NCBI RefSeq assembly: GCF_017795745.1
Contig: NZ_CP059067.1
Span: forward strand, 5,022,001 to 5,086,000
Direction of reading: 5' to 3'
From: Rhizobacter sp. AJA081-3
GTDB lineage: Bacteria; Pseudomonadota; Gammaproteobacteria; Burkholderiales; Burkholderiaceae_C
Length of the DNA stretch: 64,000 nt
Shown here: positions 10,596-26,905 of the stretch, in pieces
Layout: every line of letters begins with the position of its first letter
Numbering within the stretch: the first letter of the stretch is position 1
Program-made: the position numbers and the translations under genes
The notes under the pieces: generated by a model
The model's input: only the letters and a program-made list of their open reading frames with translations
Database searches by the model: none
Told to the model about the DNA's origin: nothing

Positions 10596-11315
10596 TCAGC
10601 GCTGAGCCGCGCGTGCGCGCAGACGCGCCTCGTGCAGCGTGCCGAGCGTGATCTTGCGCACCTCGGTCTTGCTCTGCTCGATGTGGCTCTTCAGCAGCAA
10701 CTGCGCCTGGTCGAGCTTGCGCTGCAGCACCGCGCGCAGGATCTTCGCGTGCTCGGCGTAGGTGGCGTCGATGCGGTCCTCGCGCGTGAAGTCCAGCCGC
10801 CGCACGATGCGGATGCGCTCGGTCACGTCCCAGTGCACCTTGGCGATCTCGGCGTTGCCGGCGGCACGCACCAGCGTCGCGTGGAACTGCTCGTCGAGCG
10901 CGCCGACCTCGCGCATCTCCGTCAGGCGCTCGGCGGCCGGCACCAGCCAGGCGGCTTTGAGCGCGTCGAGCTCGGGTGGGTCGCTCTCGCGCGCGCACAG
11001 CCGCGCCACGCTGGCGAGCTCGAGCAGCACGCGCAGGTCGTAGAGCTGGTCGAGCTTGTCGAAGTCGATCGGCTTGACGTACCAGCCGGCCTTGCTCTCG
11101 ACCTCCATGAAGCCTTCGTTGCGCAGCCGGAACAGCGCCTCGCGCACCGGCGTGCGGCTCACGCCCAGCCGCGTGCCCATCTCGTTCTCGGAGAAGCGGT
11201 CGCCGGGCAGCAGCTGGAAGTCGTGGATCAGCGCCTTCAGCTGCGCATAGGCCTGCTCGGCCAGGTTGCTGCGGATGCTGATCGGGGGGCTCGGGGAGGC
11301 GGCGCGCAAGGGCAT
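10596..11315 (-). CDS. GntR-family regulator (FCD domain), probable regulator of the ureide operon
   Basis: A 239-residue regulator: winged helix-turn-helix at about 16-82 (FSENEMGTRLGVSRTPVREALFRL in pieces) and an FCD ligand domain at about 90-225. The metal and ligand histidines of FCD proteins are visible in DEQFHATLV, EHAKILRAV and KSHIEQ. It is the last gene of the sixteen-gene minus-strand row, 9 bases after the dipeptide-type ATPase gene. FCD regulators of this kind bind sites like TNGTATACNA, and such a site (TTGTATACCA) is present at the start of the operon, so autoregulated control by a pathway intermediate is a reasonable inference. The effector is unknown. Confidence 0.9.
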   Translation of the reverse strand: MPLRAASPSPPISIRSNLAEQAYAQLKALIHDFQLLPGDRFSENEMGTRLGVSRTPVREALFRLRNEGFMEVESKAGWYVKPIDFDKLDQLYDLRVLLELASVARLCARESDPPELDALKAAWLVPAAERLTEMREVGALDEQFHATLVRAAGNAEIAKVHWDVTERIRIVRRLDFTREDRIDATYAEHAKILRAVLQRKLDQAQLLLKSHIEQSKTEVRKITLGTLHEARLRARAAQR

Positions 11316-11324
11316 GGGGCGAGT

Positions 11325-12338
11325 CTACGGCGCGAGCCGATCGATGAAATGGCAGGCCGCGAGCTGTGGCCCCACGGCACGCAACACCGGCGCCTCGCGG
11401 CCGCAACGGTCTTCGCCGCGCGGGCAGCGGCCATGGAAGCGGCAGGCCTGCGGCGAGGGGTCGATCGGGCTGGCCACCTCGCCGGAGAGCCTGATGCGCG
11501 GCCCCTGCCCCGGGATCGCCGACACCAGCGACTGCGTGTACGGATGCTTGGGCGAGCGGAACACCTGCTCCGACGGGCCGATCTCGACCAGCTTGCCCAG
11601 GTACATCACTGCCACGCGGTCGGTGAGCAGGCGCACCACGTTGAGGTCGTGCGACACGAACAGCAGGCTCAGCCCCAGCTCGGCGCGCAGCTGCTCGAGC
11701 AGCTGCAGCACCACCGCCTGCACCGAGACGTCGAGCGCGGCGGTGGGTTCGTCGAGGATGAGCAGCCGCGGCTTGACGGCGAGCGCCCGCGCGATGCCCA
11801 CGCGCGCCTTCTGGCCGCCCGAGAGCTGGTGCGGGAAGCGCGACAGCAGCGCCGCCGGCAGGCCGACCTGCGCCGCCACCTCGTCGACGCGCGCGTCGGC
11901 CGCGCCACGCGCCAGCCCTGACAGCAAGGTCAGCGGTTCGCGGATCGCCTCGCGCGCGGTGAAGCGCGGATTCAGGCTGTCGGTCGGGTCCTGGAAGACC
12001 ATCTGGATCGCGCTGCGCTGCGCCGCCTTGGCGAAACGCCGCGCCGGCACCGCGGCGAGGTCGACGCCTTCGAACACGATGCGGCCCTCGCTCGGGTCGA
12101 GCAGCCGTGCGATCAGGCGCACCAGCGTGCTCTTGCCACAACCGGACTCGCCAACCAGGCCGATGCTCTCGCCGGCCATCAGGCCGAGGTTGAGGTCGTC
12201 GACGGCATGCAACTGCTTGCCGCCGGCCACCGTGAAGCGCTTGTGCAGCCGCTCGATGGTCAGCAGCGGCGCGGCCGGCGGCACGAGCCTGTCGGGCGAG
12301 GGCGTGAAGCCGTTCATCAGCGGCGCGGCATCAAGCAT
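11325..12338 (-). CDS. Dipeptide-type ABC importer ATPase (DppF/OppF-like)
   Basis: A 337-residue nucleotide-binding subunit. Walker A GESGCGKST, Q loop FQDP, signature LSGGQ, Walker B LLILDEP and H loop VSHD are intact. The C-terminal oligopeptide-type extension is present with its cysteine pattern (ACRFHGRCP ... CHF). It overlaps the preceding ATPase gene by 8 bases. Together with the other ATPase, two permeases and the solute-binding protein encoded at 23405-25012, it completes a peptide/opine/nickel-class importer. Location inside the AtzF/BiuH gene row suggests that it imports a ureide-like nitrogen source; the substrate cannot be read from the sequence. Confidence 0.93.
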   Translation of the reverse strand: MLDAAPLMNGFTPSPDRLVPPAAPLLTIERLHKRFTVAGGKQLHAVDDLNLGLMAGESIGLVGESGCGKSTLVRLIARLLDPSEGRIVFEGVDLAAVPARRFAKAAQRSAIQMVFQDPTDSLNPRFTAREAIREPLTLLSGLARGAADARVDEVAAQVGLPAALLSRFPHQLSGGQKARVGIARALAVKPRLLILDEPTAALDVSVQAVVLQLLEQLRAELGLSLLFVSHDLNVVRLLTDRVAVMYLGKLVEIGPSEQVFRSPKHPYTQSLVSAIPGQGPRIRLSGEVASPIDPSPQACRFHGRCPRGEDRCGREAPVLRAVGPQLAACHFIDRLAP

Positions 12339-13356
12339 GGCGAACACTCCCGCGCGAACGCGCCGGCGGCCCGAACAGCGGGTGCCAGCAGGCCGCGCTG
12401 TGCGGCGCCACGGGGTCGAGCGCGGGGCGCTCGTGCACGCACAGCTCGCTGCCTCGCTCGCAGCGCTCGACGAAGCGGCAGCCCGGCAGATCGTCGCGGC
12501 GCAGGTCGGGCAGGTTGCCCGGCACCGGCTTGAGCTCCTGCGCCGAGCGCGTCTTCTCGCCCGGCGTGGAGCTGAGCAGCCGCGCCGTGTAGGGGTGGCG
12601 CGCCTGCGTGAAGAGTGCGCGCGCCGGCGCGGCTTCCACCGCATGGCCGGCGTGCATGACGACGATGCGGTCGCAGTGGTCGGCGGCGAGCGCGAGGTCG
12701 TGGGTGATGAACAGCGTGGCCATCTGCCGTTCGCGCGCCAGCGAGGTGATGAGGTCCATCACGGCGGCCTGCGTGGTCACGTCCAGCCCGGTGGTGGGCT
12801 CGTCGGCGATCAGCAGCGCCGGCCGGCAGGCCAGCGCCAGCGCGATCATCACGCGCTGGCACATGCCGCCGGACATCTCGAAGGGGTAGGCGCCATGGCG
12901 GCGCTCGGGGTCGGAGATGGCCACCTCGCGCAACGCCTGCACGGCGCGCTCGCGCAGGCTCACGCCGAGGTTGGCGCCGCGGGCAGCCGCGTGGCGGCGC
13001 AGAACGTCTTCGATCTGCAGGCCGACGGGGCGGATCGGATTGAGCGCCGTGCGCGGGCTCTGGAAGATCATCGAGATCTCGCGGCCGCGCAGGTCGGCGA
13101 GCGTGCGTTCGTCGGCCTTGAGCAGGTCCAGCCCGCCGAACATCGCATTGCCGCTGGTGACCTTGGCGGCGCGGTCGGAGATGCCGAGCAGCGCATAGCT
13201 CAGCACCGACTTGCCCGAGCCGCTCTCGCCGACCAGGCCGACGATCTCGCCCTTGCGGATCTGCAGGTCGACGCCCTGCAGCGCATGCACGGTGCCGCTG
13301 CGCGTGCGGAACTCGAGGCCGAAGTCGGTGACATCGAGCAGGGGAGGCGCGCTCAT
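12331..13356 (-). CDS. Dipeptide-type ABC importer ATPase (DppD/OppD-like)
   Basis: A 341-residue nucleotide-binding subunit. Walker A GESGSGKS, Q loop FQSPRTALNP, signature variant MSGGM, Walker B LLIADEP and H loop ITHD are present, as is the C-terminal cysteine-bearing oligopeptide domain (GCRFVERCERG). The start overlaps the permease stop by ATGA (13353-13356), and its stop overlaps the next ATPase start. It pairs with the DppF-like subunit as a heterodimeric motor. Confidence 0.93.
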   Translation of the reverse strand: MSAPPLLDVTDFGLEFRTRSGTVHALQGVDLQIRKGEIVGLVGESGSGKSVLSYALLGISDRAAKVTSGNAMFGGLDLLKADERTLADLRGREISMIFQSPRTALNPIRPVGLQIEDVLRRHAAARGANLGVSLRERAVQALREVAISDPERRHGAYPFEMSGGMCQRVMIALALACRPALLIADEPTTGLDVTTQAAVMDLITSLARERQMATLFITHDLALAADHCDRIVVMHAGHAVEAAPARALFTQARHPYTARLLSSTPGEKTRSAQELKPVPGNLPDLRRDDLPGCRFVERCERGSELCVHERPALDPVAPHSAACWHPLFGPPARSRGSVRHA

Positions 13357-14201
13357 GTCCGCCTCCGCGGATCGAAGATGTCGCGCAGCGCGTCCCCCAG
13401 CAGGTTGAAGGTGAACACCGCCAGCATCAGCACCGCGCCCGGGAAGAAGCTCACCCACCACTCGCCGGAGACGATGAACTGCGCGCCTTCGGCGACCAGG
13501 ATGCCCCACTCCGGCGTCGGCGGCCGCACGCCCAGGCCGATGAAGGACAGACCGGCCGCGTTGAGGATCGCCCAGCCCATGTTCAGGCTCACCTGCACCA
13601 TCGCCGGCGGCAGGATGTTGGGGAACAGGTGCACGGCGAGGATGCGCACGTCGCCGTTGCCCGACAGCCGCGCCGCCTCGATGAAGCCGGCGCCGCGCCG
13701 CACGTTGGCCTCGGCACGCGCCACGCGGATGTAGAAGGGCAGGTTGATGATCGCCGTGGCCAGCACGATGTTGCCCACTGTGTTGCCCATCGCCGCGACG
13801 ATGCCCATCGCCAGCACGAAGAGCGGGAAGGCCATGATGGTGTCGGACACGCGGGTGATCGCCGTGTCCCACCAGCCGCCGAAGAAGCCGGCCGCCAGGC
13901 CCAGCGCGATGCCCAGCGCGAACGACAGCGCCACCGCCGAGATGGCGATGCCCAGGTCGAGCCGCGTCGCCACCAGCGTGCGCGAGAAGATGTCGCGGCC
14001 CAGCGCGTCGGTGCCGAACCAGTGTGCGCCCGAGGGCGGCTGCAGCGCCGCCGTGGCGTTGCTCGCCAGCGGGTCGTGCGGCACGATCGCCGGGCCGATG
14101 AGCGCGATCAGGATGAACAGCGCAAACAGCGCCGCCGCGGCCATCGTCACCGGGTTCTCGGAGAGCACGTGCCTGACGTGCTTGAGCGTCTCATTGCTCA
14201 T
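13353..14201 (-). CDS. Dipeptide-type ABC importer permease (DppC-like)
   Basis: A 282-residue inner-membrane permease. It has the DppC N-terminal feature GTDALGRDIFSR, about six hydrophobic helices, and the EAA loop EAARLSGNGDVRILAVHLFPN that docks on the ATPase. The segment FIGLGVRPPTPEWG is characteristic of the family. ATGA overlaps join it to the neighbouring permease and ATPase genes, indicating one transcript and coupled translation. Confidence 0.93.
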   Translation of the reverse strand: MSNETLKHVRHVLSENPVTMAAAALFALFILIALIGPAIVPHDPLASNATAALQPPSGAHWFGTDALGRDIFSRTLVATRLDLGIAISAVALSFALGIALGLAAGFFGGWWDTAITRVSDTIMAFPLFVLAMGIVAAMGNTVGNIVLATAIINLPFYIRVARAEANVRRGAGFIEAARLSGNGDVRILAVHLFPNILPPAMVQVSLNMGWAILNAAGLSFIGLGVRPPTPEWGILVAEGAQFIVSGEWWVSFFPGAVLMLAVFTFNLLGDALRDIFDPRRRT

Positions 14202-15214
14202 GACCCCTCCAGCGTCACGCGCGGGTCGATCAGCGTGTAGAGCAGGTCCACCACCAGGTTGAGCAGCACGAACAGCACGCCCATCGCCAGCACGAAGCCC
14301 TGGATCGGCGCGTAGTCGCTCGCCGTCAACGCGTCGATCGCGTAGCTGCCCACGCCCGGCCAGCCGAATACCTTCTCGATGACCACGCTGGAGCCGAGCA
14401 TGAAGCCGAACACCATGCCCAGCGTCGTCACCACCGGCAGCAGCGCATTGCGCAGCGCGTAGGTGACGAGCACCGTACTGCTCGTCAGGCCCGAGGCGCG
14501 CGCGGTGCGGATGAAGTCGCTGCCGAGCACCGAGAGCATCGAGGCGCGTGTCATGCGCGCGATCGGCGCGAGCACGAAGATCGCCATGGTCAGCGTCGGC
14601 AGGATCAGCTGCTTGAAGCTCGCCCACCATAGCGAGCCGTCGCCGATCAGCGCCGCGTCGATCAGGTAGAAGCCGCTGACCTGCGGCGGCGGCGAGAACA
14701 TCGGGTCGAGCCGGCCCAGCGGCGAGGGCGCCCAGCCGAGCAGGAAGTAGAAGACGTAGGCCAGCACCAGCCCCGTGAAGAAGGTCGGCAGCGAGACGCC
14801 GGCGGTGGTGACCAGGCGGCACAGCTGGTCGATCCACGAGCCCGGCCGCGTGGCGGCGAGCACGCCCAGCGGCAGCGCGATCGCGCAGGCCAGCGCCAGC
14901 GCCAGCAGCACCATCTCGATCGACGCCGGCAGCCGCGTGATCAGCTCCTGCAGCACGGGTTGCCCGGTGGTGATGGACGTGCCGAGCTCGCCATGCGCCA
15001 GGTCGGCCACGTAGCGGAAGAACTGCTCGATCATCGGCTTGTCCAGGCCGAGCTGGGCGCGCACCTGGTCGACCGCTTCCTGCGTGGCCGCGCCGCCGGC
15101 GAAGTAGGCCGCCGGGTCGCCGGGCAGCGCGCGCGTGAGCAGGAAGGTCACGACGATCACGCCGGCCAGGTTGGGCAGGGCACCGAGCAGGCGCTTGGCG
15201 ACGATCTTGAGCAT
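14198..15214 (-). CDS. Dipeptide-type ABC importer permease (DppB-like)
   Basis: A 338-residue permease with the DppB opening (LPGDPAAYFAGG, AQLGLDKPMIEQFFRYV) and six predicted helices. The docking loop FIRTARASGLTSSTVLVTYALRN is split in the usual place, and the end YTLIDPRV is typical. The region LGWAPSPLGRLDPMFSPPPQVSGFYLIDA is longer than in peptide permeases and is seen in relatives that transport non-peptide substrates. It begins 1 base after the isochorismatase stop, inside the same gene row. Confidence 0.93.
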   Translation of the reverse strand: MLKIVAKRLLGALPNLAGVIVVTFLLTRALPGDPAAYFAGGAATQEAVDQVRAQLGLDKPMIEQFFRYVADLAHGELGTSITTGQPVLQELITRLPASIEMVLLALALACAIALPLGVLAATRPGSWIDQLCRLVTTAGVSLPTFFTGLVLAYVFYFLLGWAPSPLGRLDPMFSPPPQVSGFYLIDAALIGDGSLWWASFKQLILPTLTMAIFVLAPIARMTRASMLSVLGSDFIRTARASGLTSSTVLVTYALRNALLPVVTTLGMVFGFMLGSSVVIEKVFGWPGVGSYAIDALTASDYAPIQGFVLAMGVLFVLLNLVVDLLYTLIDPRVTLEGS

Positions 15215-15215
15215 C

Positions 15216-15877
15216 TCAGCGAAGCGCCGATTCGATGTCCGCGAGCGGTGCCGCCCAGCCGACGATGCCGCCCTGCGCCACCACCATCTCGATCACCGCG
15301 GCGTGGAACTGCGGGAAATAGCTCGCCGCACAGTCGGTGACAAGCAGGCATTCGTAGCCGCGGTCGTTGGCCTCGCGCATGGTGCTCTGCACGCAGACCT
15401 CGGTGGTCACGCCGCCGATCAGCAGATGCGTGATGCCCTGCGCATGCAGGATCGCGTCGAGGCTGGTGGCGTGGAAGGCGCCCTTGCCCGGCTTGCGCAG
15501 CACGATGTCGCCGGGTTGCGGCTGCAGCTCGGGCACGAAGCCCGCGCCCGGCTCGCCGGCCACCAGCACGCGGCCCAGCGGGCCAGGGTCGCCGATGCCG
15601 CAGCTCAAGGCGCCGCGCGCGCGCTTCGAGGGCGGGCAGTCGGCCAGCTGCGCGTCGTGCGCCTCCTGCGTGTGGATCACCGCCATGCCCTTTGCGCGCG
15701 CCAGCGCGAGCAGCCGCGCGCAGGCCGGCACGATGGGCCGCAGCAGCGAGACGTCGTTGCCCAGCATCGCGCCGAAGCCGCCGGGCTCGAGGAAGTCGCG
15801 CTGCATGTCGATCATCAGCACGGCGGTGTGCGCCGGCTCGAACGGGAAGTCGTAGGGGCGGGCGTGCACGGTCGGCA

Positions 15878-15878
<1 letters not shown>
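15216..15878 (-). CDS. Isochorismatase-fold cysteine hydrolase, candidate triuret hydrolase
   Basis: A 220-residue amidohydrolase of the isochorismatase superfamily. The catalytic triad is visible as D24 (LMIDMQRDF), K129 (LRKPGKGAF) and C162 (GGVTTEVCVQST), followed by the cis-peptide pattern VTTE and the [11 protein letters not shown] block. It is a clear paralogue of the biuret hydrolase encoded at 17508-18203, but the substrate-lining segments differ (FLEPGGFGAMLGND versus [14 protein letters not shown]). In known triuret degraders a triuret hydrolase of this family (TrtA) makes carboxybiuret, the substrate of AtzEG, which is also encoded here; that makes TrtA the best guess. Other ureide or N-carbamoyl amidases remain possible. 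Coupled by a one-base overlap to the ATPase gene. Confidence 0.8.
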
Positions 15879-17503
<1,625 letters not shown>

Positions 17504-17507
17504 GGTT

Positions 17508-18203
17508 TCAGCCCAGCGCCGCGAGGATGGTCGCCGATGCGGCCACCGCGCCGAACACGCCGCCCTGCATCGTCACCATCTTCAGCGCCGCCTCGTGGTT
17601 GCCGCGGTCGGTGGCGCCGGTGCCGTCGCTGACGATCAGGCACTCGAAGCCGCGGTCGTTGGCCTCGCGCATCGTCGTGTGCACGCACACGTCGGTGGTG
17701 ATGCCAGTGAGGATGAGGTTGCGGATGCCTCGCGTGTGCAGGATCAGCTCGAGGTCGGTGGCGCAGAAGGAGCCCTTGCCGGGCTTGTCGATCACCGGCT
17801 CGCCTTCGATCGGCGCGAGCTCATCGATGATCTGCCAGCCCGGCTCGCCGCGCACCAGGATGCGGCCGCAAGGGCCGGGGTCGCCGATGCCCACGCCGTT
17901 GGCGCCGATCTGCCGCGAGCGCCAGCGCTTGTTGGCCGGCAGGTCCGCGAGGTCGGGCCGGTGGCCCTCGCGGGTGTGGATGACGTGCATGCCGAGCGCG
18001 CGGGCCTTCGTGAGCAAGGCCTGGATCGGGCCGATCGGCGCGCGCGTCATCGACAGGTCGTAGCCCATGCGGTCGACGTAGCCGCCGATGCCGCAGAAGT
18101 CGGTCTGCATGTCGATGATGACCAGCGCGGTGTTCGCCGGCGTCCAGTCGCCGTCGAAGGGCCAGGCGTAGGGGTTCGCGTCGACGGTGGCGAAGGGCTT
18201 CAT
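17508..18203 (-). CDS. biuH: Biuret hydrolase (biuret amidohydrolase)
   Basis: A 231-residue isochorismatase-family enzyme, closely matching my recollection of Rhizobium leguminosarum BiuH: DPYPWP-like N-terminus (NPYAWPFDG), [23 protein letters not shown], [21 protein letters not shown], and [14 protein letters not shown]. Triad residues by alignment are D31, K140 and C173 ([14 protein letters not shown]), which line up with the reported D36/K142/C175. It should convert biuret to allophanate and ammonia in the cytoplasm, feeding AtzF encoded in the same row. It has a small insertion ([12 protein letters not shown]) relative to that sequence. The closeness of these motifs makes this the most specific functional call of the cluster. 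Confidence 0.88.
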
Positions 18204-18215
18204 CGGATTCGCTCC

Positions 18216-19142: not shown

Positions 19143-20239
19143 TTGGAAGCCTTGAAGAATTGCCGACCGCGCAGCGTCTCGCAGGCGATCAGCGCGACGA
19201 AGGCGAAGCCGAGCAGCACCGTCACCGCGGCGTCGGGCAGGCCCAGGCGCCGCTGCAGCAAGCTGCCGCTGGCGGCGATGCCGCCCACGAGAATGGCCAC
19301 CGGCACCACGCCGGCCGGCGAGAAGCGCGCCGCGAAGGCGATCAGGATGCCGGTGTAGCCGTAGCCGGCGATCAGCGAGGCGTTGGCCGCGCCGTGCACG
19401 GCCGCCACTTCCACCGCGCCGGCCAGGCCCGCGCAGGCGCCGCCGGCCGCGCAGGCGCCGATCGTGAGCTTCACCACGGGCAGGCCGACGCCGAGCGCGG
19501 TGCGCGCATTGCCACCGGCAACGCGCAGCGCCAGGCCGAGCGGCGTGAAGCGCATGACGGCCCAGGCGGCCAGCGCGACGAGCAGGCCGAGCAGCAGGCC
19601 GTAGTGCACGTCCAGCCCCGGCATGGTCGGCAGGAGCAGCGCGTCGGGCAGCGGTTTCGTCGAGGGCTTGTTCAGGCTCGCCGGATCGCGCAGCACCGTC
19701 TCCACGCACTGGTTGAACAGCGCGATGGCGATGAAGGACATCAACAGCGAGGCGATCGTCTCGTTGACCTCGCGCTTCTCGCGCAGCAGCCCGACCAGGC
19801 CGATCCAGATGCCGCCCGCCAGCGCCCCGGCAATGGCCATCGCCGGCCACACCAGCCAGGCCCCGGCCTGCGCCGAGGCGAGCACATTGCCGAATGCCGC
19901 GGCCGCCAGCCCCCCGAGCACCAGCGCGCCTTCGTTGCCGATGATCACGCGCCCGGCCTGCGCCGGCAGCGCCACCGCCAGGCCGGTGAGGATCAGCGGC
20001 GCGGCGCGCTGCAGCGTGTTCTGCCATGCGAACGCGTCGCCGAAGCCGCCGAGCACGATCAGCCCCCACACCTCGAAGGCGTTGAAACCGGCCAGCGCGA
20101 CGGCGGCCGAGAACAGCAGCACCGTCAGCACCAGCGCGGCGGCGGCCGGCACCAGCGACTCGGCCAGCGCGCGCCACTTCAGCGCCGCGGCCGAGGGCTC
20201 GGCCGCCGGCATGCCGGCCGGGACGGGGATGCTGCTCAT
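19139..20239 (-). CDS. BMP/nucleoside-type ABC importer permease
   Basis: A 366-residue permease, the longer partner typical of BMP importers. It shows the family block VIIGNEGALVLGGL, the docking loop LGLALRVAGGNARTALGVGLP (two parts), and AGLAGAVEVAAVHGAANASL. The first 30 residues are a cytoplasmic, alanine/proline-rich leader. A segment REKREVNETIASLLMSFIAI matches nucleoside permeases. It lies 13 bases after the binding-protein gene. Confidence 0.93.
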   Translation of the reverse strand: MSSIPVPAGMPAAEPSAAALKWRALAESLVPAAAALVLTVLLFSAAVALAGFNAFEVWGLIVLGGFGDAFAWQNTLQRAAPLILTGLAVALPAQAGRVIIGNEGALVLGGLAAAAFGNVLASAQAGAWLVWPAMAIAGALAGGIWIGLVGLLREKREVNETIASLLMSFIAIALFNQCVETVLRDPASLNKPSTKPLPDALLLPTMPGLDVHYGLLLGLLVALAAWAVMRFTPLGLALRVAGGNARTALGVGLPVVKLTIGACAAGGACAGLAGAVEVAAVHGAANASLIAGYGYTGILIAFAARFSPAGVVPVAILVGGIAASGSLLQRRLGLPDAAVTVLLGFAFVALIACETLRGRQFFKASK

Positions 20240-20252
20240 GGCGTGGCGCCAG

Positions 20253-21383
20253 TCAGCCGGGGATCGAGCCGATGACGCCTTCCACCAGGTAGTTCATCTT
20301 CTCGAGCTCGGCATCGAACTGGTCGAGGTTCTTGCCGGCCGGGATGACCACCGCGCCCTTGTTGTCCTTCAGGCCGCCCTTGAAGATCGCGTAGCCGCCC
20401 TTGACCATCAGCGCCTTGATCTCGTCGGCCTTGGCCTTGGCGGCCGCACCCACCGCGGCGCCGTAGGGTGACATCTTCACGTAGCCGTCCTTCAGGCCGC
20501 CGCGCAGGAAGTTGGGCATCGGCGCGCCGCTCTGTGCCGCCTTGATCTGCGCGTTGTAGGGCGTGGCCCAGTCCCACTCGGCGCCGGTCAGGTAGCCCTT
20601 CGGTGCCAGCGCGGCCTGGCTGGCGTGGTAGCCGCTGGAGAACACGCCGCGCTTCTCTGCTGTCTCGACGATCACCTTCGGGCTGTCGACGTGGCAGGTC
20701 AGCACATCCACGCCCTGGTCGATCAGGCTCGTCGAGGCTTCGGCCTCCTTGACCGGCATCGACCATTCGCCGGTGAAGATCACCCGCGTGGTGATGCTCG
20801 GGTCGACCGAGCGCGCGCCCATCGTGAAGGCGTTGATGTTGCGCAGCACCTGCGGGATCGGCTTGGCGGCGATGAAGCCGAGCTTCTTCGTCTTGCTGGT
20901 GTAGCCCGCCACGATGCCGGCGAGGTACTGGCATTCGTCGATGTAGCCGAAGTAGCTGCCGGTGTTGGCCGGGTGCTTGCCCTGGGTCCACATGCCGCCG
21001 CAATGCGCGAAGCGCACCTTGGGGTACTTCTCCGCCATCTTCAGCATGTGCGGGTCGAAGTAGCCGAATGAGGTCGGGAAGATCAGCGAGGCCTTGTCCT
21101 GGTTGATCATGGCCTCCATGGTCTTCTGCACCGATGCGGTCTCGGGCACGTTCTCTTCCTCGACCACCTTCACGCCGGGCAGCTTCTTGATCGCCGCGGC
21201 GGCCTGAGCCTGCGCCTGGTTGTAGCCGAAGTCGCCGCGCGGGCCGACGTAGATCACGCCGACGACGATCGGCGTCTGCGCGAGCGCCTCGCGCAGCGCA
21301 CCGGGCAGCACGAGCGAGCCGGCGCCGAGGGCGGAGCCGGCGAGCAGTCGGCGGCGCAGCGCATCGTGGGTGGGTTGGTCCAT
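20253..21383 (-). CDS. BMP-family solute-binding protein
   Basis: A 376-residue periplasmic binding protein of the BMP (basic membrane protein / purine nucleoside) family. The leader has a twin-arginine-like start (ALRRRLLAGSALGAG) and cleavage near REALAQTP, so Tat export is possible. Family hallmarks: VGVIYVGPRGDFGYN, a buried YFGYIDECQYLAGIVAGYTSK and KLGFIAAKPIPQVLRNINAF. In characterised relatives the ligand is a nucleoside or another small polar heterocycle. In this context a ureide such as biuret or triuret is a plausible ligand (inference). The DUF3225 gene lies 14 bases upstream. Confidence 0.92.
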   Translation of the reverse strand: MDQPTHDALRRRLLAGSALGAGSLVLPGALREALAQTPIVVGVIYVGPRGDFGYNQAQAQAAAAIKKLPGVKVVEEENVPETASVQKTMEAMINQDKASLIFPTSFGYFDPHMLKMAEKYPKVRFAHCGGMWTQGKHPANTGSYFGYIDECQYLAGIVAGYTSKTKKLGFIAAKPIPQVLRNINAFTMGARSVDPSITTRVIFTGEWSMPVKEAEASTSLIDQGVDVLTCHVDSPKVIVETAEKRGVFSSGYHASQAALAPKGYLTGAEWDWATPYNAQIKAAQSGAPMPNFLRGGLKDGYVKMSPYGAAVGAAAKAKADEIKALMVKGGYAIFKGGLKDNKGAVVIPAGKNLDQFDAELEKMNYLVEGVIGSIPG

Positions 21384-21397
21384 GGGGTTCTCCTCGT

Positions 21398-21799
21398 TCA
21401 GGGTGGGGTGGGGGTGGACTTCGGCAACAGGCTCACGTGGGCGGCCACGACGCGCCAGCCGCCATGGCCGGGCGCGGCGGTGCGCACCCAGGTCTGGCTC
21501 TGGCGGCCGCTCACGGCGGGACGGGCGAACTCGGTCATCGCGGTGGCGACATCGCGGCCGAAGGTGGTGATGACGGTGTGGCGCAGCTCGCGCGCCAGGC
21601 CGACCGGCGAGCGCGCGTTGCGGAAGGCGCGGATCGCCTCGATGCCGACCAGGTTCTCGCCGACGCCGTAGCGCACGGTGTGCGGAGAGTCCCAGAAGAG
21701 CTGGTCGAGCAGCGTCACGTCGTTGCTCGTCAGCGCCTGCTCGTACAGCGCGAACACGGCGCTGACTTCGGCGTGGATGTCGGGCAGGTTGATGTCCAT
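21398..21799 (-). CDS. AtzH-like DUF3225 protein
   Basis: A 133-residue protein of the SnoaL/NTF2-like DUF3225 group that includes AtzH and HpxZ. Typical pieces are [40 protein letters not shown] and [14 protein letters not shown]. AtzH from Pseudomonas sp. ADP is reported to hydrolyse and decarboxylate 1,3-dicarboxyurea to allophanate, so the pathway position between AtzEG and AtzF fits; HpxZ of oxalurate catabolism is the alternative. Seven bases separate it from the amidase gene. The sequence supports the family strongly and the exact reaction only through context. Confidence 0.85.
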
Positions 21800-21806
21800 G
21801 CGCGGC

Positions 21807-23192
21807 TCAGTTCAAGGCGGCCACGGGGGCGGTGGCCAGGCCCTGGGCCTCGAGCTCGGCGGCCACGCGCAGCGCCAGGTCCTCGCGCCAGGGCGCGGCG
21901 ATCACCTGCACGCCGATGGGCAGGTGCGGCGCTGCCGGGTTGCAGCCCCACAGCGGCACGGTGACCACCGGCAGGCCGATGCAGGAGATGGGCTGCGTCA
22001 GCAGGCCCATGCTCGCGCGCGCCGGCAGGCGCTGGCCGTTGATCTCCAGCCACTCGGTGCCGATGACCGGGGCGACACAGGGCGTGGCGGGCGCGAGCAG
22101 CACGTCGACCGTCTCGAAGGCGCGCGCCAGCTGCCGCGCGAAGACGTGGCGCACCCGCTGCGCCTGCGCGATCCAGGCGGCGGGCAGCAGCGCGCCGGCG
22201 AGGAAGCGGTCGCGCGACAGTGGCTCGAAATCCTGCGCGCGTGTCTTCAGGTCGGCCAGGTGCAGCGTCGAGCTCTCGGCGTTGGTGATCAGGAAGGCGG
22301 CGGCGCGCGCGCGGTCGACGTCGTGCAGCTCGACCAGGCGCGTGGTGCCCAGCGCCTGCGCGACGGCATCGACGGCGGCCAGCGCCTCGGGCATCGCCAT
22401 CTCGCGGAACCAGCCGCCGAGCACGGCGATGCGCAATCCGTCGGCGCGGCCGCCGAGCAGCTCGCGCGTCGGCTCGGGTGGGCGCTGCGCGCAGGCCGGG
22501 TCGTCCGGCGCGGGGCCTTGCATCGCGTCGTAGGCGAAGGCGAGGTCGGCGACGCTGCGCGCGAAGGGGCCGAGGTGGTCGAGGCTGGCGACGAAGGGGT
22601 AGCTGCCCAGCCGCGGCAGGCGGCCGTAGGTGGGCTTGAGGCCGAACACGCCGCACAGCGACGAGGGCACGCGGATCGAGCCGTTGGTGTCGGAGCCGAG
22701 CGTGATCGGCACCTGCCCCGCCGCCACTGCCGCGCCGGAGCCGCCGGAAGAGCCACCCGAGATGCGCGTCAGGTCGTGCGGGTTGCGCGTCGGCCCGTAG
22801 TGGGTGTTCTCGGTGGTGAAGCCGTAGGCGTACTCGTCCATGTTGAGCGCGCCGACGAGGATGGCGCCGGCCGCTTCCATGCGGCGCACCAGCAGCGCGT
22901 CGCGCGAGGCCGGCGCGGCATCGCGTTCGATCTTCGAGCCGGCCAGCGTGGGCAGGCCGGCGATGTCGAACAGGTTCTTTACCGCGAAGGGCACGCCGGC
23001 CAGCGACAGCTCGGCGCGGCGCGTGTGCTTGTCGATCTGCCCGGCGCGCTTGAGCGCGCGCTCGGCGAGCACGGCGGTGAAGGCGTTCACCTTGGGATCG
23101 GTGGCGTAGATCAGCGCCAGGCTGGACTGCACGACGCTGCTGGCCGAGAGTTCGCCGGAGCGCACCTTCGCGGCGATCTCGACGGCCTTCAT
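21807..23192 (-). CDS. atzE: AtzE-family amidase (1-carboxybiuret hydrolase catalytic subunit)
   Basis: A 461-residue amidase-signature enzyme, the usual AtzE length. The Ser-cisSer-Lys triad is K72 (FAVKNLFD), S148 (GGSSGGS) and S172 ([10 protein letters not shown]). The segment [17 protein letters not shown] is characteristic of the AtzE/HpxY group. The start overlaps the AtzG-like stop by ATGA, matching the subunit pairing known for AtzE-AtzG. The expected role is cytoplasmic hydrolysis of 1-carboxybiuret to 1,3-dicarboxyurea and ammonia. Because HpxY of oxalurate catabolism is a close relative, the substrate rests on the neighbouring biuH and atzF genes. Confidence 0.9.
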
Positions 23193-23401
23193 GCCAGCGG
23201 CCCCCGCGGCGACACCGGCACGAACACGGCGCCGGATTCGTCTTCGACGCCGAGCTCCTGCCCCATCACGCGCTCGGCCATGGCGGCGGCCAGCGTCACG
23301 AAGGCGATCACGCCGGGCTTGTGCTCGGTGGCGATGCGCAGGCCGAGCGCGGCGGCGTTGGCCTGCACCATCGCCTCGATCTGAGCGGGCGTGAGGCTCA
23401 T
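23189..23401 (-). CDS. atzG: AtzG-like small subunit (DUF4089)
   Basis: A 70-residue helical protein, mostly two or three amphipathic helices (IEAMVQANAAALGL, GVIAFVTLAAAMAERVM). It matches the DUF4089/AtzG family in size and in its position immediately before the AtzE gene, with which it overlaps by four bases. In Pseudomonas AtzG is needed to fold and stabilise AtzE in a heterotetramer that resembles GatCA. The same role is inferred here. Confidence 0.85.
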   Translation of the reverse strand: MSLTPAQIEAMVQANAAALGLRIATEHKPGVIAFVTLAAAMAERVMGQELGVEDESGAVFVPVSPRGPLA

Positions 23402-23404
23402 GGC

Positions 23405-25012
23405 TCAGGCCTTCGACAGCTGCCGGTAGTCCGGCTGCAGGTGGAACCAGTACATGTAGCCCTGCACGTCCTTCTGCATGGCCACGTCCATGGTCGGCTG
23501 GAACAGCGGCACGCGCGGCACCTCGTCGAAGGCGATCTGCACCATGTCCTTCACGAAGGAGTCGTACAGCGTCTTGCTCTCGGCGAAGCGCGCGTTGGTG
23601 ATGATCTTGTCGAGCTTGGCGTTCTGGTAGCTCATGGTGTTGAACACGGCGTTCTGCCCGTGGTAGCACCAGAAGAAGAAGTACTCGGGGAAGTCCAGCC
23701 AGCCGCCGAAGCGGTTGATGATCAGCGGCATGTCCTTCTTCAGCAGCGCCGAGCGCCAGGTGGCGCCGGGGATCTTGTTGATCTGCGTCTTGATGCCGAT
23801 CGCGGCCAGCGACTCCTGGATGAGGATCGCCATCGGCTCGCTGATCGTGCCGCTGCCCAGATCGAAGCTCAGCGTGGTCTCGAAGCCGGCACTGGCGCCG
23901 GCCTCGGCCATCAGCGCCTTGGCCTTCGCGAGGTCGGTCTTGTAGCCGGTGGGCTGCGGCCACGCAGTGCTGGTGACCTGCATCGACGGGGCGCCGTACA
24001 GCTTGATGGCGCGGCCGTACAGCGCGTTCTCGTAGAGCTTGTCGTAGGGCAGCGCCAGCGCCACGGCCTGGCGCACCTTCGGGTTGTCGAAGGGTGCCTT
24101 GGTGGTGTTCATGCCGAGGTAGAACATCGCGTTCTCGATCGGCGTGCTGCTCACCTTCACCGCCGCGCCCTCCTTCGACAGCTCGGAGAAGTCCTTCGGC
24201 GGCAGGTCGTAGGTGATGTCGATGTCGCCCTTGACGAGCAAGGCGCGGCGGTTGCCGGCGTTGGGCACCTCGCGCTGCACGATGCGGCGCAGCTTCGGCA
24301 GCGGGCCGCTCTTCCACTCGTCGAAGCGCACGTAGACGATTTCCTGCCCGGGGCGGAAGGCCTCCACCTTGTACGCGCCGCCGCCGGCGGTGTTGTTGCG
24401 CGTCCAGACCAGGCCCCAGGGGTCGGCGGCGGTGGCGTTCTTCTTCACCAGCTCGCTGTTGAAGATCGACGGCACCGGCACCGCCAGGTCGTTCATCGTC
24501 AGCTTGTCCTTGCGCAGGAACTTGACGGTGAAGGTGTGGTCGTCCACCACGACGAACTGCTCGGGCTTCTCCAGCGAGCCGGCGGCCATCTGGAAGGTCG
24601 GGAAGCCGCCCACCGTGACGGCGCGGTCGAAGCTCCACTTGACGTCTTTCGCGGTCACTGGCGTGCCGTCGTGGAACTTGGCGTTCTTGCGCAGCTTGAA
24701 GGTCACCGAGCCGCCGTCGGGCGCCATCTGCCAGCTCTCGGCGAGCTCGGGCTCGAGCTTGTTGCGGTCGTAGACGACGCGGCCGTCGGGCAGCGTCTTC
24801 TTGCCGTAGCTCATCAGCCGGTCGTAGCAGATCCAGCTCACGCCGTAGCTCGCGCGATTCGCGCCGACGGTGTGGATGTCCAGCGAGTTGGGGCCGAACT
24901 CGTTGGCGACGATGAGCACGTCCTTCGGGCGCGCCTGTGCGCGGGCGGCCAGCGGCAGCGCGCCGAGCGCGGCAGCGGCGCTGCCCGATTGAATGAAACG
25001 ACGACGGTCCAT
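23405..25012 (-). CDS. Dipeptide/opine-type ABC solute-binding protein
   Basis: A 535-residue family-5 extracellular binding protein. The leader has a twin-arginine motif (MDRRRFIQSGS) and ends around ARAQAR. Family landmarks are KLRKNAKFHDGTPVTAKDVKWSFDR (two parts), YKVEAFRPGQEIVY and NPKVRQAVALALPYDKL. The rest of its transporter (DppB, C, D, F-like) is encoded about 8 kb further along the same row, with the BMP importer and enzymes between. It lies 13 bases after atzF and 3 bases before atzG, so it is embedded in the catabolic unit. Ligand unknown; a ureide is inferred. Confidence 0.92.
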   Translation of the reverse strand: MDRRRFIQSGSAAAALGALPLAARAQARPKDVLIVANEFGPNSLDIHTVGANRASYGVSWICYDRLMSYGKKTLPDGRVVYDRNKLEPELAESWQMAPDGGSVTFKLRKNAKFHDGTPVTAKDVKWSFDRAVTVGGFPTFQMAAGSLEKPEQFVVVDDHTFTVKFLRKDKLTMNDLAVPVPSIFNSELVKKNATAADPWGLVWTRNNTAGGGAYKVEAFRPGQEIVYVRFDEWKSGPLPKLRRIVQREVPNAGNRRALLVKGDIDITYDLPPKDFSELSKEGAAVKVSSTPIENAMFYLGMNTTKAPFDNPKVRQAVALALPYDKLYENALYGRAIKLYGAPSMQVTSTAWPQPTGYKTDLAKAKALMAEAGASAGFETTLSFDLGSGTISEPMAILIQESLAAIGIKTQINKIPGATWRSALLKKDMPLIINRFGGWLDFPEYFFFWCYHGQNAVFNTMSYQNAKLDKIITNARFAESKTLYDSFVKDMVQIAFDEVPRVPLFQPTMDVAMQKDVQGYMYWFHLQPDYRQLSKA

Positions 25013-25025
25013 CGAAGACTCCGGT

Positions 25026-26852
25026 TCAGTGCAGGGAAGCGAGGTAGGCGCGCCAGCCGCCGAAGCCGCTGACGTCGGGCGCTGCGGCGACGGCGTGCGC
25101 CTCGCACAGGAAGCCGTGCACGCGCCGCCCGTCGGCCAGTTCGATCGAGCCCAGCCCCAGCGGCGCGGGGATCAATGCAAGAAAGCTGCCCACCGCCGAT
25201 TGCGGCATCGCCCAGACCTCGAGTGCGATGGCGTGGCCGGCGGCCTCGTCGCGCACCAGGCCGGGTTTGGGCGGCACCGTGCCGGGCAGCGCGTGCAGGC
25301 GATAGCGCGGTGCGGTGGTGGTGGCTTCGATCAGCGTGGCGCCGCGTTCGATCAGCTGCCCGTTCAGCGGCAGGCCCGAGAGGTGCGCGCCGACCACGGC
25401 GATCGGCAGCAGCCGCTCGTGTCGCGGCCACAGCGTGGGCGTGGCCGCTGGCAGCGAAGGCACCCTGCTGGCGGCGCCCATCGGCAGTGCGGCGGCGGCC
25501 TGCCAGCCGCGGGCGAAGCGCGCCAGCGCAGCGTCGTGCCGCGGCGGCGCGATGAAGGTCACGCCGAAGGGCAGGTGCGCCGTCGTGGTGCCGCTGGGCA
25601 CCGCGATCGCGCACCAGTCGAGCAGGTTGACGAAGTTGGTGTAGCGGCCGAGCTGCGAGTTCAAGCCGATCGGGTCGGCGTCGATGTCGGCGAAGCGCGG
25701 GTGGCCGGTGGTGGTGGGCACCATCAGCACATCGCAGCCGGCCCACACCGCGGCAGCCTGCAGCGCCAGCTCGCGCAGCCGGTACTGCGCGACGAAGGCG
25801 TCGGTGGCGCTCATGTCGAGCGCGCGCGAGATCACGCGGCGCACCGTGTCGTCGAAGGCCTCGGGCTGGCGCGCCAGCAGCGTGCGCACGGCGGCGTGGC
25901 GCTCGGCCACCCAGGGGCCGTCGTAGAGCAGCGCGGCGACCTCGTGCAGCGGCGAGAAGTCGATCGGCACCACGCGGTGGCCGAGCGACCCGAGCCGCTC
26001 CAGCGCTGACGGCCACGCGCTGACGTAGGCGGCGTCGCCGAAGAACTCGGGCTGCGCGGGCACGCCGATGCTTAGCGCCGGCGCGTAGGCGGCCGGGCCG
26101 GGCGCGAAGCGGCTGTAGGCGTCGGCGGGGTCGGCGCCTTCGATGACGGCGAGCACGCCGGCGGCGTCGTCCACCGTCTGCGCGAAGATCGACACGCAGT
26201 CGAGGCTGCGGCAGGCCGGCACCACGCCGGCGGTGCTGGTGCGCCCCGGTGTCGGCTTGAGGCCGACGATCTGGTTGAAGCCGGCCGGCACGCGGCCCGA
26301 GCCGGCCGTGTCGGTGCCCAGCGAGAACGGCACGTCGCCGCGCGCGACCAGCACCGCCGAGCCGGCGCTGGAGCCGCCGCTGATGCGCTCGGGCGCCAGC
26401 GCGCTGGCCGGGCGGCCGTAGGGCGAGCGGGTACCGACCAGGCCGGTGGCGAACTGGTCGAGGTTGGTCTTGGCGATCCAGACGGCGCCGGCGGCCTCCA
26501 GCCGCTGGACAACGGTGGCGCTGCGCTCTGCGCGGTGCGCGAAGGCCGGGCAGGCAGCGGTGGTCTCGATGCCAGCGATGTCGATGTTGTCTTTCACTGC
26601 GAAGGGCACGCCGAACAGCGGCAGCGCGGCCAGCAGCGCGGCGCGGTCGGCATGTTTCGCGGCGGCGGCATCCAGCGCGGCCAGGCGCGCCTGCAGTTCG
26701 GCGTCGCTGATCAGGCGGATCACCGCCACGTCATGCGTGCGCGCCGCCAACCGGCCGCGCAGCGAGCCCAGCAGCGCGGCCGGCGAAGCACCGTCGCGGT
26801 AGGCCTGCAGCCAATCGGGGAGCGTGAGGGGCGTGACGGGGGTCGGGATCAC
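25026..26852 (-). CDS. atzF: Allophanate hydrolase
   Basis: The 608-residue product from GTG at 26852 matches AtzF length (about 605). An ATG at 26906 is in frame, but it lies within the predicted sigma-54 -24 box and would translate the operator, so GTG is preferred; its ribosome site is weak. The amidase domain has triad K87 (FAVKDNIDI), S161 (GGSSAGS) and S185 (DTAGSGRVP). The separate C-terminal domain from about residue 455 (HLSGLPLNGQLIERGA, YRLHALPGTVPPKPGLVR, EVWAMPQSAVGSFLA) is the allophanate hydrolase C domain. The enzyme splits allophanate to ammonia and carbon dioxide in the cytoplasm, the last step of biuret or urea-carboxylase routes. There is no urea carboxylase gene beside it. 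First gene of the row. Confidence 0.92.
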   Translation of the reverse strand: MIPTPVTPLTLPDWLQAYRDGASPAALLGSLRGRLAARTHDVAVIRLISDAELQARLAALDAAAAKHADRAALLAALPLFGVPFAVKDNIDIAGIETTAACPAFAHRAERSATVVQRLEAAGAVWIAKTNLDQFATGLVGTRSPYGRPASALAPERISGGSSAGSAVLVARGDVPFSLGTDTAGSGRVPAGFNQIVGLKPTPGRTSTAGVVPACRSLDCVSIFAQTVDDAAGVLAVIEGADPADAYSRFAPGPAAYAPALSIGVPAQPEFFGDAAYVSAWPSALERLGSLGHRVVPIDFSPLHEVAALLYDGPWVAERHAAVRTLLARQPEAFDDTVRRVISRALDMSATDAFVAQYRLRELALQAAAVWAGCDVLMVPTTTGHPRFADIDADPIGLNSQLGRYTNFVNLLDWCAIAVPSGTTTAHLPFGVTFIAPPRHDAALARFARGWQAAAALPMGAASRVPSLPAATPTLWPRHERLLPIAVVGAHLSGLPLNGQLIERGATLIEATTTAPRYRLHALPGTVPPKPGLVRDEAAGHAIALEVWAMPQSAVGSFLALIPAPLGLGSIELADGRRVHGFLCEAHAVAAAPDVSGFGGWRAYLASLH

Positions 26853-26865
26853 GGTTTCGGTGCAC

Positions 26866-26883
26866 CTGCTGGTATACAAGCAG
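26866..26883. promoter_or_regulatory. GntR/FCD-type operator palindrome before atzF
   Basis: CTGCTGGTATACAAGCAG is an 18-bp palindrome with one mismatched pair; its core TGGTATACAA reads TNGTATACNA on both strands, the pattern bound by FadR-subfamily GntR proteins. It covers the start site predicted from the sigma-54 element, a position suited to repression. The GntR gene at the far end of the row is the likely ligand. Confidence 0.6.
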
Positions 26884-26889
26884 GGATTC

Positions 26890-26905
26890 AGCAGAAACCG
26901 TGCCA
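26890..26905 (-). promoter_or_regulatory. Sigma-54 (-24/-12) promoter of the ureide operon
   Basis: The minus strand reads TGGCAC-GGTTT-CTGCT: the -24 box is perfect, GG and GC are ten bases apart, and only the first T of TTGC is changed. Start predicted near 26879, about 27 bases before the GTG of atzF. RpoN control with NtrC is usual for nitrogen-scavenging genes; no convincing NtrC site was seen nearby. Confidence 0.6.

What the first reader, a model, noticed from the sequence alone, without database searches (positions are those of the whole stretch)
10596..26905. Single-strand 16-gene ureide (triuret/biuret/carboxybiuret) uptake and catabolism operon
AtzF, AtzE, AtzG, an AtzH-like protein, BiuH and a BiuH paralogue are interleaved with two full ABC importers and end with a GntR/FCD regulator, most junctions being ATGA overlaps or gaps under 15 bases. 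From established biochemistry: triuret hydrolase gives carboxybiuret, AtzEG gives 1,3-dicarboxyurea, AtzH gives allophanate, BiuH makes allophanate from biuret, and AtzF releases ammonia and CO2. The set thus appears complete for triuret and biuret, without AtzD (cyanuric acid ring opening). A self-contained importer-plus-pathway unit of this size with both branches is, to my knowledge, not described. Substrate identity is inference.
Basis: partly seen in the sequence, partly recalled or inferred. Interest (0 to 1): 0.85.

Follow-up and report, generated by a model that had tools for sequence, protein, structure and literature searches.

The report
Triuret and biuret uptake-and-breakdown operon
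This is a 16-gene bacterial operon that most likely imports and digests the fertiliser by-products triuret and biuret for their nitrogen; its layout is a variant of one already noted in related bacteria, but comparison suggests that an atrazine-degrading plasmid took at least one of its genes from an operon of this kind.

Summary
Sixteen same-strand genes (10596-26852), all 15 junctions between -17 and +14 bases, encode AtzF, AtzG, AtzE, AtzH, BiuH, a BiuH paralogue, two ABC importers and a GntR/FCD regulator. The paralogue is triuret hydrolase TrtA by nearest structure and 13 of 13 published positions. No AtzD was found in the genome (control). Best reading: triuret -> carboxybiuret (TrtA) -> dicarboxyurea (AtzEG) -> allophanate (AtzH) -> ammonia (AtzF), BiuH taking biuret. 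Activities are inferred.

The layout is not undescribed: PMC6219798 reports it in Burkholderiales, and trtA-biuH-atzF operons are published. Apparently new: of 102 TrtA+ genomes among 399 of the family, 76 have AtzE, 19 an AtzH-like TrtB candidate, none both, 7 neither. AtzH Arg66 is present in 90 of 90 AtzE+ rows and absent from 25 of 27 AtzE- rows, although published Arg66 variants were not listed as impaired. The atrazine plasmid's AtzE nests among triuret-operon AtzEs. Outside this family the link is weaker: 4 of 33 AtzE+ genomes have a TrtA match within 5 kb.

The parts
26860..26879 (-). Probable operator of the GntR/FCD regulator, TTGTATACCAGCAGGTGCAC, just before the AtzF start
   Evidence: Only match at up to 2 mismatches in the 5.4 Mb genome, though the backwards control pattern also gave one match. 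The core TTGTATAC(C/A)A occurs 19 times in 19 of 60 family loci (1.17 Mb) against 0 in each of 10 Markov resamples, each time 8 to 201 bases upstream of an AtzF or BMP match (distances are to the aligned match, not to a checked start codon).
25026..26852 (-). AtzF, allophanate hydrolase, amidase plus C-terminal domain
   Evidence: TIGR02713 750 bits against cut-off 511; PF01425 and PF21986; Lys-Ser-Ser positions 91/165/189 kept (189 is named in PMC6219798, 91 and 165 are recalled)
23405..25012 (-). Family-5 substrate-binding protein of the Dpp-type importer
   Evidence: PF00496
23189..23401 (-). AtzG, small subunit of carboxybiuret hydrolase
   Evidence: PF13318 45.7 bits against cut-off 24; no solved-structure match
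21807..23192 (-). AtzE, catalytic subunit of carboxybiuret hydrolase
   Evidence: PRK09201 721 bits against 461, TIGR02715 687 against 426; same clade as pADP-1 AtzE, bootstrap 100
21398..21799 (-). AtzH, dicarboxyurea-type decarboxylating amidohydrolase with Arg66
   Evidence: PF11533; 9 of 9 published pocket residues kept
20253..21383 (-). BMP-type substrate-binding protein, nearest solved structure AtzT
   Evidence: PF02608; 6pi5 216.7 bits; altered pocket
19139..20239 (-). Permease 1 of the BMP importer
   Evidence: Best NCBIfam NF047929, below its cut-off; position
18216..19142 (-). Permease 2 of the BMP importer
   Evidence: Best NCBIfam NF047928, below its cut-off; position
17508..18203 (-). 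BiuH, biuret hydrolase
   Evidence: NF050097 415.8 bits against 370; 6AZO 374 bits; BiuH states Y,Y,S,D,T,V at the six discriminating positions
15878..17503 (-). ATPase of the BMP importer
   Evidence: PF00005, two stretches
15216..15878 (-). TrtA, triuret hydrolase
   Evidence: TrtA 6XIX 290 bits against 232 and 207 for BiuH structures; TrtA states F,N,A,E,Y,I
14198..15214 (-). DppB-type permease
   Evidence: NCBIfam Opp/Dpp permease matches below cut-off
13353..14201 (-). DppC-type permease
   Evidence: NCBIfam matches below cut-off
12331..13356 (-). DppD-type ATPase
   Evidence: NCBIfam matches below cut-off
11325..12347 (-). DppF-type ATPase
   Evidence: NCBIfam matches below cut-off
10596..11315 (-). 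GntR/FCD transcriptional regulator
   Evidence: PF00392 and PF07729

Best explanation
A nitrogen-scavenging operon for triuret and biuret. One or both ABC importers bring the ureides in. TrtA removes one ammonia from triuret to give carboxybiuret; AtzEG removes a second to give 1,3-dicarboxyurea; AtzH decarboxylates that to allophanate; AtzF releases the last two ammonias. BiuH turns biuret, whether imported or formed when carboxybiuret loses CO2 by itself, into allophanate, so no nitrogen is stranded. The GntR/FCD regulator probably acts at TTGTATACC...GGTGCAC in front of atzF. Shown here: gene identities, active-site residues, gene order, conservation, no AtzD found. Inferred: all activities, transport substrates, and the regulator-operator pairing.
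For: BiuH over its curated cut-off; 13 of 13 TrtA positions present; AtzE, AtzF and AtzG over their cut-offs; AtzE in one clade with pADP-1 AtzE, bootstrap 100, apart from the Klebsiella HpxY clade. In 399 family genomes 76 of 102 TrtA+ genomes carry AtzE, against 15 of the other 297. Of the 12 TrtA+ genomes with a single match of this enzyme family, 9 (each 99-100% complete) have AtzE; the other three are G058, whose enzyme fits BiuH better, and the incomplete G209 and G266. AtzH carries Arg66, as do all 90 rows from AtzE+ family genomes. PMC7948467 states that TrtA and AtzD both produce carboxybiuret (sections read).
Against: I know of no biochemistry or growth data for this organism. 15 of 91 AtzE+ family genomes lack TrtA, and outside the family only 4 of 33 AtzE+ genomes have a TrtA match within 5 kb, so AtzE is not tied to triuret alone. 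The second importer differs between genera, so its substrate need not be triuret. 19 TrtB-type genomes do without AtzE, so AtzEG is not obligatory for triuret use. Guanylurea hydrolase GuuH, a related enzyme, was not compared.
Confidence: 0.82

Rival explanations
1. AtzG, AtzE and AtzH are really HpxX, HpxY and HpxZ: an oxalurate (purine breakdown) module that shares the operon.
For: NCBIfam names 21398-21799 HpxZ, over the cut-off; the Klebsiella hpxX, AtzE-family and hpxZ genes have the same order.
Against: pADP-1 AtzH is itself annotated HpxZ, so the name does not discriminate. The window's AtzE groups with pADP-1 AtzE at bootstrap 100, not with the nine enteric sequences that include Klebsiella, and matches the TrtA-linked state at 9 of 10 discriminating columns (the columns were chosen from TrtA-linked rows, the window's relatives and some duplicate loci included).
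Confidence: 0.07
2. A cyanuric acid operon that has lost, or borrows, its ring-opening enzyme.
For: AtzG, AtzE, AtzH and AtzF are the pADP-1 set, and pADP-1 also has a BMP-type importer.
Against: No PF09663 match in the complete genome, while the same search rings in pADP-1 and pZXPA-20-602k. TrtA supplies the same intermediate. The pocket of the binding protein differs from AtzT.
Confidence: 0.04
3. Triuret is degraded mainly through biuret: AtzH also decarboxylates carboxybiuret, BiuH finishes, and AtzEG serves some other amide.
For: In AtzE-less clusters an AtzH-family gene lies next to TrtA, AtzF or BMP, and carboxybiuret decarboxylates by itself with a half-life of about 20 min (PMC7948467). 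AtzE also occurs without TrtA.
Against: Those AtzE-less AtzH proteins lack Arg66 in 25 of 27 family rows, whereas AtzE+ genomes keep it in 90 of 90; nine nearly complete genomes with TrtA and AtzE have no BiuH match.
Confidence: 0.12

Closest known systems
Burkholderiales allophanate hydrolase/atzGEH/ABC transporter/amidase clusters of Esquirol et al. 2018 (PMC6219798, section 14 read; its figures and supplements not seen)
   Same: Allophanate hydrolase upstream of atzG-atzE-atzH on one strand, ABC transporter genes in between in about half, ABC transporters and amidases downstream, in Rhodoferax, Variovorax, Rhizobacter, Leptothrix and Methylibium
   Different: The section I read leaves the downstream amidases unnamed and the role open; here they resolve as BiuH and TrtA. 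The window's genus uses a Dpp-type second importer, where 17 of the 22 two-importer full sets among my 60 fetched loci use a NitT/TauT type.
trtA-biuH-atzF(-trtB) triuret operons of Herbaspirillum, Rhizobium and nitrifiers (PMC7948467 sections, PMC12625717 passages)
   Same: TrtA, BiuH, AtzF, and in ammonia-oxidising bacteria BmpA-NupABC
   Different: Carboxybiuret handled by AtzGEH instead of TrtB; a second importer
atzDGEHF plus AtzT-type importer of plasmid pADP-1
   Same: AtzG, AtzE, AtzH, AtzF and a BMP-type importer
   Different: No AtzD; BiuH and TrtA present; GntR instead of LysR; altered binding-protein pocket
hpx oxalurate genes of Klebsiella
   Same: HpxX, the AtzE-family gene and HpxZ correspond to AtzG, AtzE and AtzH
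   Different: AtzE clade differs; no amino-acid transporter or HpxU regulator in the window's operon

Membership tests
Triuret hydrolase TrtA | Catalytic Asp24, Lys129, Cys162 and TrtA states Phe35, Asn41, Ala134, Glu160, Tyr187, Ile205 | tested here: met
   All match in 15216-15878; BiuH states match in 17508-18203
Triuret hydrolase TrtA | Activity on triuret, very little on biuret | not testable with these tools
   Needs purified enzyme
Biuret hydrolase BiuH | Curated equivalog cut-off NF050097 | tested here: met
   415.8 against 370 bits
Carboxybiuret hydrolase AtzEG | AtzE family cut-offs, AtzG partner, same clade as the proven enzyme | tested here: met
Carboxybiuret hydrolase AtzEG | Activity on carboxybiuret | not testable with these tools
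   Needs purified complex
Dicarboxyurea-type AtzH | Published pocket Tyr22, Arg46, Arg63, Arg66, Arg73, Phe94, Arg96, Gln106, Gln108 | tested here: met
   9 of 9; the nine enteric HpxZ rows keep them too, so this does not separate AtzH from HpxZ
Oxalurate hpxXYZ | AtzE homologue in the HpxY clade | tested here: not met
   Separate clades in the 87-sequence tree
Cyanuric acid operon atzDGEHF | AtzD/TrzD ring-opening amidohydrolase | tested here: not met
   No match genome-wide; positive controls ring
TrtB-type triuret operon | AtzH-like TrtB candidate without AtzE | tested here: not met
   The genome has one AtzH-family match, 43% to the TrtB candidate, with Arg66 and with AtzE. That TrtB is this family is inferred; I did not see its published sequence.
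AtzT guanine-binding importer | Glu165, Asn218, Asn220 with the Tyr45/Trp194 sandwich | tested here: not met
   Sandwich kept; Gln, His and Asp at the three polar positions
GntR/FCD control of this operon | Regulator binds the putative operator | not testable with these tools
   Position and conservation only

The most novel reading that the evidence does not exclude
In Burkholderiales, atzGEH was shaped as the carboxybiuret branch of triuret operons, and the atrazine plasmid pADP-1 took atzE, and probably atzH, from one of them. In these operons two modules exclude each other: AtzEG with an AtzH that keeps Arg66, which reads the second carboxylate or shuts carboxybiuret out, or an AtzH-family TrtB that has lost Arg66 and sends carboxybiuret to biuret and BiuH. 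The linked BMP binding protein is a dedicated triuret/biuret receptor with the signature Gln165/His218/Asp220 (AtzT numbering).
Probability: 0.5. Interest if true: 0.68.

Novelty: new variant of a known kind. Interest (0 to 1): 0.5.

Why it matters
It gives a candidate physiological role to the atzGEH clusters that Esquirol et al. found in Burkholderiales and left open, and it points to where a well-known recent pathway (atrazine breakdown) may have obtained part of its enzymes. It offers a single-residue marker, Arg66, and a binding-protein signature that can sort triuret-degrading genomes and be tested at the bench. Triuret and biuret enter soils with urea fertiliser (PMC7948467).

Tried and rejected
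Rejected: the oxalurate reading of AtzGEH, and the cyanuric acid reading. In the first AtzD search the controls were silent, so pADP-1 and pZXPA-20-602k were used as positive controls. The first TrtA alignment A1 had two rows in the wrong orientation (L014, L022) and was replaced by A2. AtzG gave no solved-structure match. The AtzF tree did not place pADP-1 AtzF with the window: it sits among mostly alphaproteobacterial AtzFs, so the recruitment claim is made for AtzE and, with weak support, AtzH, not AtzF; AtzG was not tested. The midpoint-rooted FastTree left the relation of the window's AtzE clade to the pADP-1 clade weak (0.439); IQ-TREE gave bootstrap 100 for their union, rooted on the enteric clade.

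Results against the reading. Arg66Ala and Arg66Lys of pADP-1 AtzH were made by Esquirol et al. and are not among the five variants they list as significantly worse (PMC6219798, section 13 read), so Arg66 is not essential in that assay. Discordant rows (6 of 175): G190 and the second G020 copy (Arg66, no AtzE found); L143 and L117 (AtzE present, Val66, AtzH about 3.5 kb from AtzE); L156 (an AtzE match of 60% is listed but fell under the score rule) and L088 (cut by its contig end). In one search the rows of loci fetched by an AtzE match, and L193-L196, were AtzE+ by selection. In a phylum-wide sample 35 of 398 genomes had AtzE; of the 33 other than the window's genome and G114, 21 had a match to TrtA at 1e-40, but by the two tables only 4 (G429, G491, G547, G771) have it within 5 kb of AtzE, and 8 of the 11 genomes of family f18 (which holds the enteric-type AtzE rows) had none. 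BiuH absence is not linked to AtzE (P = 1.0). The Fisher values ignore relatedness. G058, counted TrtA+ by the E-value rule, fits BiuH better, so 101 may be truer than 102.

Dropped or soft data: L046 AtzE is absent from the AtzE trees (its match is in pieces and did not meet the length rule). Seven duplicate loci (L163, L135, L105, L089, L161, L138, L126) were left out but not. The AtzE genome search scored at most 4 first-look candidates per genome and the TrtA search at most 7, so single absences are soft. The five nearly complete genomes with neither module were read directly (L197, L199, L200, L201, and G215 on L198 and L281) and show AtzH without an AtzE next to it (L199 and L200 hold distant amidase matches of 32-36%). 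Loci for one search are 60 of the 102 TrtA+ genomes, taken partly by rank and partly for unusual cases, so its counts are not a random sample; its Dpp count of 5 uses a score rule and misses L068, which also shows Dpp-type genes.
Full report
Observation. The window lies at 5022001-5086000 of a complete 5.4 Mb genome. A coding-score gene call gives 16 minus-strand genes from 26852 to 10596; all 15 junctions lie between -17 and +14 bases. Four of the five other same-genus genomes searched hold the same 16 genes in the same order; the fifth has no TrtA and no AtzE match. The operon is real and maintained.

Enzymes. 17508-18203 passes the curated BiuH cut-off (415.8 against 370 bits); its paralogue 15216-15878 does not (253 bits). 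The paralogue's best solved structure is TrtA, 6XIX, at 290 bits, against 232 and 207 for two BiuH structures. PMC7948467 names residues that separate TrtA from BiuH (Results and the first part of the Discussion read). At Phe35, Asn41, Ala134, Glu160, Tyr187 and Ile205 the paralogue has every TrtA state, and 17508-18203 has every BiuH state (Tyr, Tyr, Ser, Asp, Thr, Val). Among 136 TrtA-like sequences from fetched loci, 106 have all six; position 134 differs in 29, positions 35 and 41 in one each. AtzE and AtzF exceed their curated cut-offs; AtzG, AtzH and the C-terminal domain of AtzF exceed theirs in Pfam. AtzH keeps 9 of 9 pocket residues listed in PMC6219798. No cyanuric acid hydrolase family member is found genome-wide, while the same search rings in two AtzD-bearing plasmids.

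Pathway. From published biochemistry, TrtA makes carboxybiuret, which AtzD also makes from cyanuric acid; AtzEG deaminates it; AtzH is thought to decarboxylate the product to allophanate; AtzF finishes (PMC7948467, PMC6219798). The gene set is therefore complete for triuret, and BiuH plus AtzF is complete for biuret. That these proteins do this in this organism is inference.

Which AtzE. The name HpxZ that NCBIfam gives to AtzH raised the oxalurate alternative. pADP-1 AtzH bears the same name. In an 87-sequence maximum-likelihood tree of AtzE rooted on nine enteric-type sequences including Klebsiella's, the window's AtzE and pADP-1 AtzE fall in one clade with bootstrap 100. Apart from the two AtzD-operon sequences (pADP-1 and pZXPA-20-602k) and L175, every other member carries TrtA in the same fetched locus, the window included. 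L175 comes from G114, where a TrtA match lies about 1.2 kb beyond AtzE. pADP-1 AtzE is nested inside, and its closest match is Ramlibacter monticola L115 at 79%. AtzH agrees, with weaker support; AtzF does not. The plain reading is that the plasmid's atzE, and probably atzH, came from a triuret operon. PMC6219798 already suggested that the cluster may pre-date the cyanuric acid operon (abstract).

Two exclusive modules. In 399 family genomes, 102 have a TrtA-like protein at E 1e-70 or better (PMC7948467 gives 1-2% of recorded genomes overall); 76 of them have AtzE, 19 an AtzH-like TrtB candidate with 60% identity or more to the L056 protein, none both, and 7 neither. One of the 102, G058, fits BiuH better than TrtA. 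Of the seven, G209 and G266 are 81-84% complete; the other five, read directly, have AtzF, AtzH, BMP importer, BiuH, TrtA and GntR (G215 split over two contigs) but no AtzE beside them; in L200 and L281 the NitT/TauT ATPase lies 5 and 14 bases from AtzH, as if atzGE had been cut out. The 16 TrtB-type loci fetched all show BiuH, and the other three TrtB-type genomes (G394, G223, G005) have a second match. Of 12 TrtA+ genomes with a single match, the 9 that are 99-100% complete and fit TrtA all have AtzE. This is what the chemistry predicts, though the association of BiuH absence with AtzE is not significant.

Arg66. Of the nine listed AtzH pocket residues, Arg66 is the one that tracks AtzE. Of 117 AtzH-family rows from the family, 90 of 90 in AtzE+ genomes have Arg66; 25 of 27 in AtzE- genomes do not. 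Over 175 rows including named loci from other groups, 169 agree and 6 do not, and Arg66 changes at least 4 times on the tree. A Herbaspirillum locus (L112) has an AtzH-like gene without Arg66 after TrtA and no AtzE. I infer that this is the published TrtB, whose sequence I did not see. I propose that Arg66 either binds the second carboxylate of dicarboxyurea or keeps carboxybiuret out. Against a simple form of this, Arg66Ala and Arg66Lys are not among the variants listed as significantly worse in the published cascade.

Limits outside the family. In a phylum-wide sample, 35 of 398 genomes have AtzE. Of the 33 besides the window's genome and G114, 21 have a match to TrtA at 1e-40, but comparing the two tables only four have it within 5 kb of AtzE. 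The triuret link of AtzE is therefore a claim about this family, not about AtzE in general.

Importers. The BMP-type binding protein is nearest to AtzT, which binds guanine (PMC6834077; first of five parts and passages read). Of the AtzT pocket, Tyr45, Ser97, Phe98, Asn169 and Trp194 are kept, while Glu165, Asn218 and Asn220 become Gln, His and Asp. Among 94 other distinct binding proteins from fetched loci, His218 and Asp220 are each present in 93, and 83 have all three; 93 of the 94 loci have a TrtA match over 200 bits, and the other, L195, has one of 56% identity. A planar-ligand sandwich with changed polar contacts fits a flat ureide better than guanine; this is inference. The second importer is Dpp-type in the window's genus and in G056, with DppB also next to TrtA in G209 (L283), and NitT/TauT-type in 39 of the 60 fetched loci. 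Its substrate is open.

Regulation. TTGTATACCAGCAGGTGCAC at 26860-26879 precedes atzF. With two mismatches allowed it is the only match in the genome, though the backwards control also matched once. The core occurs 19 times in 1.17 Mb of family loci against none in ten resamples, each time 8 to 201 bases upstream of an AtzF or BMP match; 41 of the 60 loci do not have the core. A GntR homologue is present in 56 of the 60 loci, which makes this the likely operator.

Known or new. The gene layout is in print (PMC6219798), as are the separate trtA operons (PMC7948467, PMC12625717). I searched the held library for triuret with hydrolase and carboxybiuret, carboxybiuret decarboxylase, triuret with biuret hydrolase and ABC transporter, atzE with biuH, triuret with allophanate hydrolase and operon, and trtA with triuret. 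In those listings and in the sections and passages that I read, nothing joins TrtA with atzGEH in one operon or reports the Arg66 pattern. I read no paper whole, saw no supplements, and most subscription papers are not held, so this is a limited check. I rate the operon a new variant of a known kind; the evolutionary and residue patterns are its interesting part.

Noticed in passing
L196 (Pseudomonas putida plasmid pZXPA-20-602k, 4932-12722): A cluster with a ring-opening amidohydrolase, AtzF, a DUF4089 (AtzG-like) protein, AtzE and HpxZ/AtzH, followed by a solute carrier family 23 protein and an OprD porin rather than a BMP importer, near mercury resistance genes and a Tn3 transposase.
   Followed up: partly
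L194 (CP125156.1): A 5.37 Mb Klebsiella record labelled plasmid in the plasmid collection carries hpxX and hpxZ; its size suggests a mislabelled chromosome.
   Followed up: no
L143 and L117 (Beijerinckiaceae MAG and Rhizobium sp. MAG): TrtA next to AtzE, with an AtzH of the Val66 type about 3.5 kb further on and Dpp-type importer genes nearby: the clearest exceptions to the Arg66 rule.
   Followed up: partly
L282 8152-8517 (G190) and L226 (G020, contig 26): AtzH-family genes with Arg66 in genomes where no AtzE was found; role unknown.
   Followed up: partly
window 8491-10577, + strand: An OmpR-type response regulator and an EnvZ-type sensor kinase end 18 bases from the convergent GntR gene.
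   Followed up: no
L205, L206, L069, L079, L081: TrtA-AtzE-AtzH clusters without BiuH that, besides the NitT/TauT importer, hold a low-identity (32-41%) relative of the BMP importer's ATPase and permeases, an opposite-strand amidase and a distant isochorismatase-like gene.
   Followed up: no
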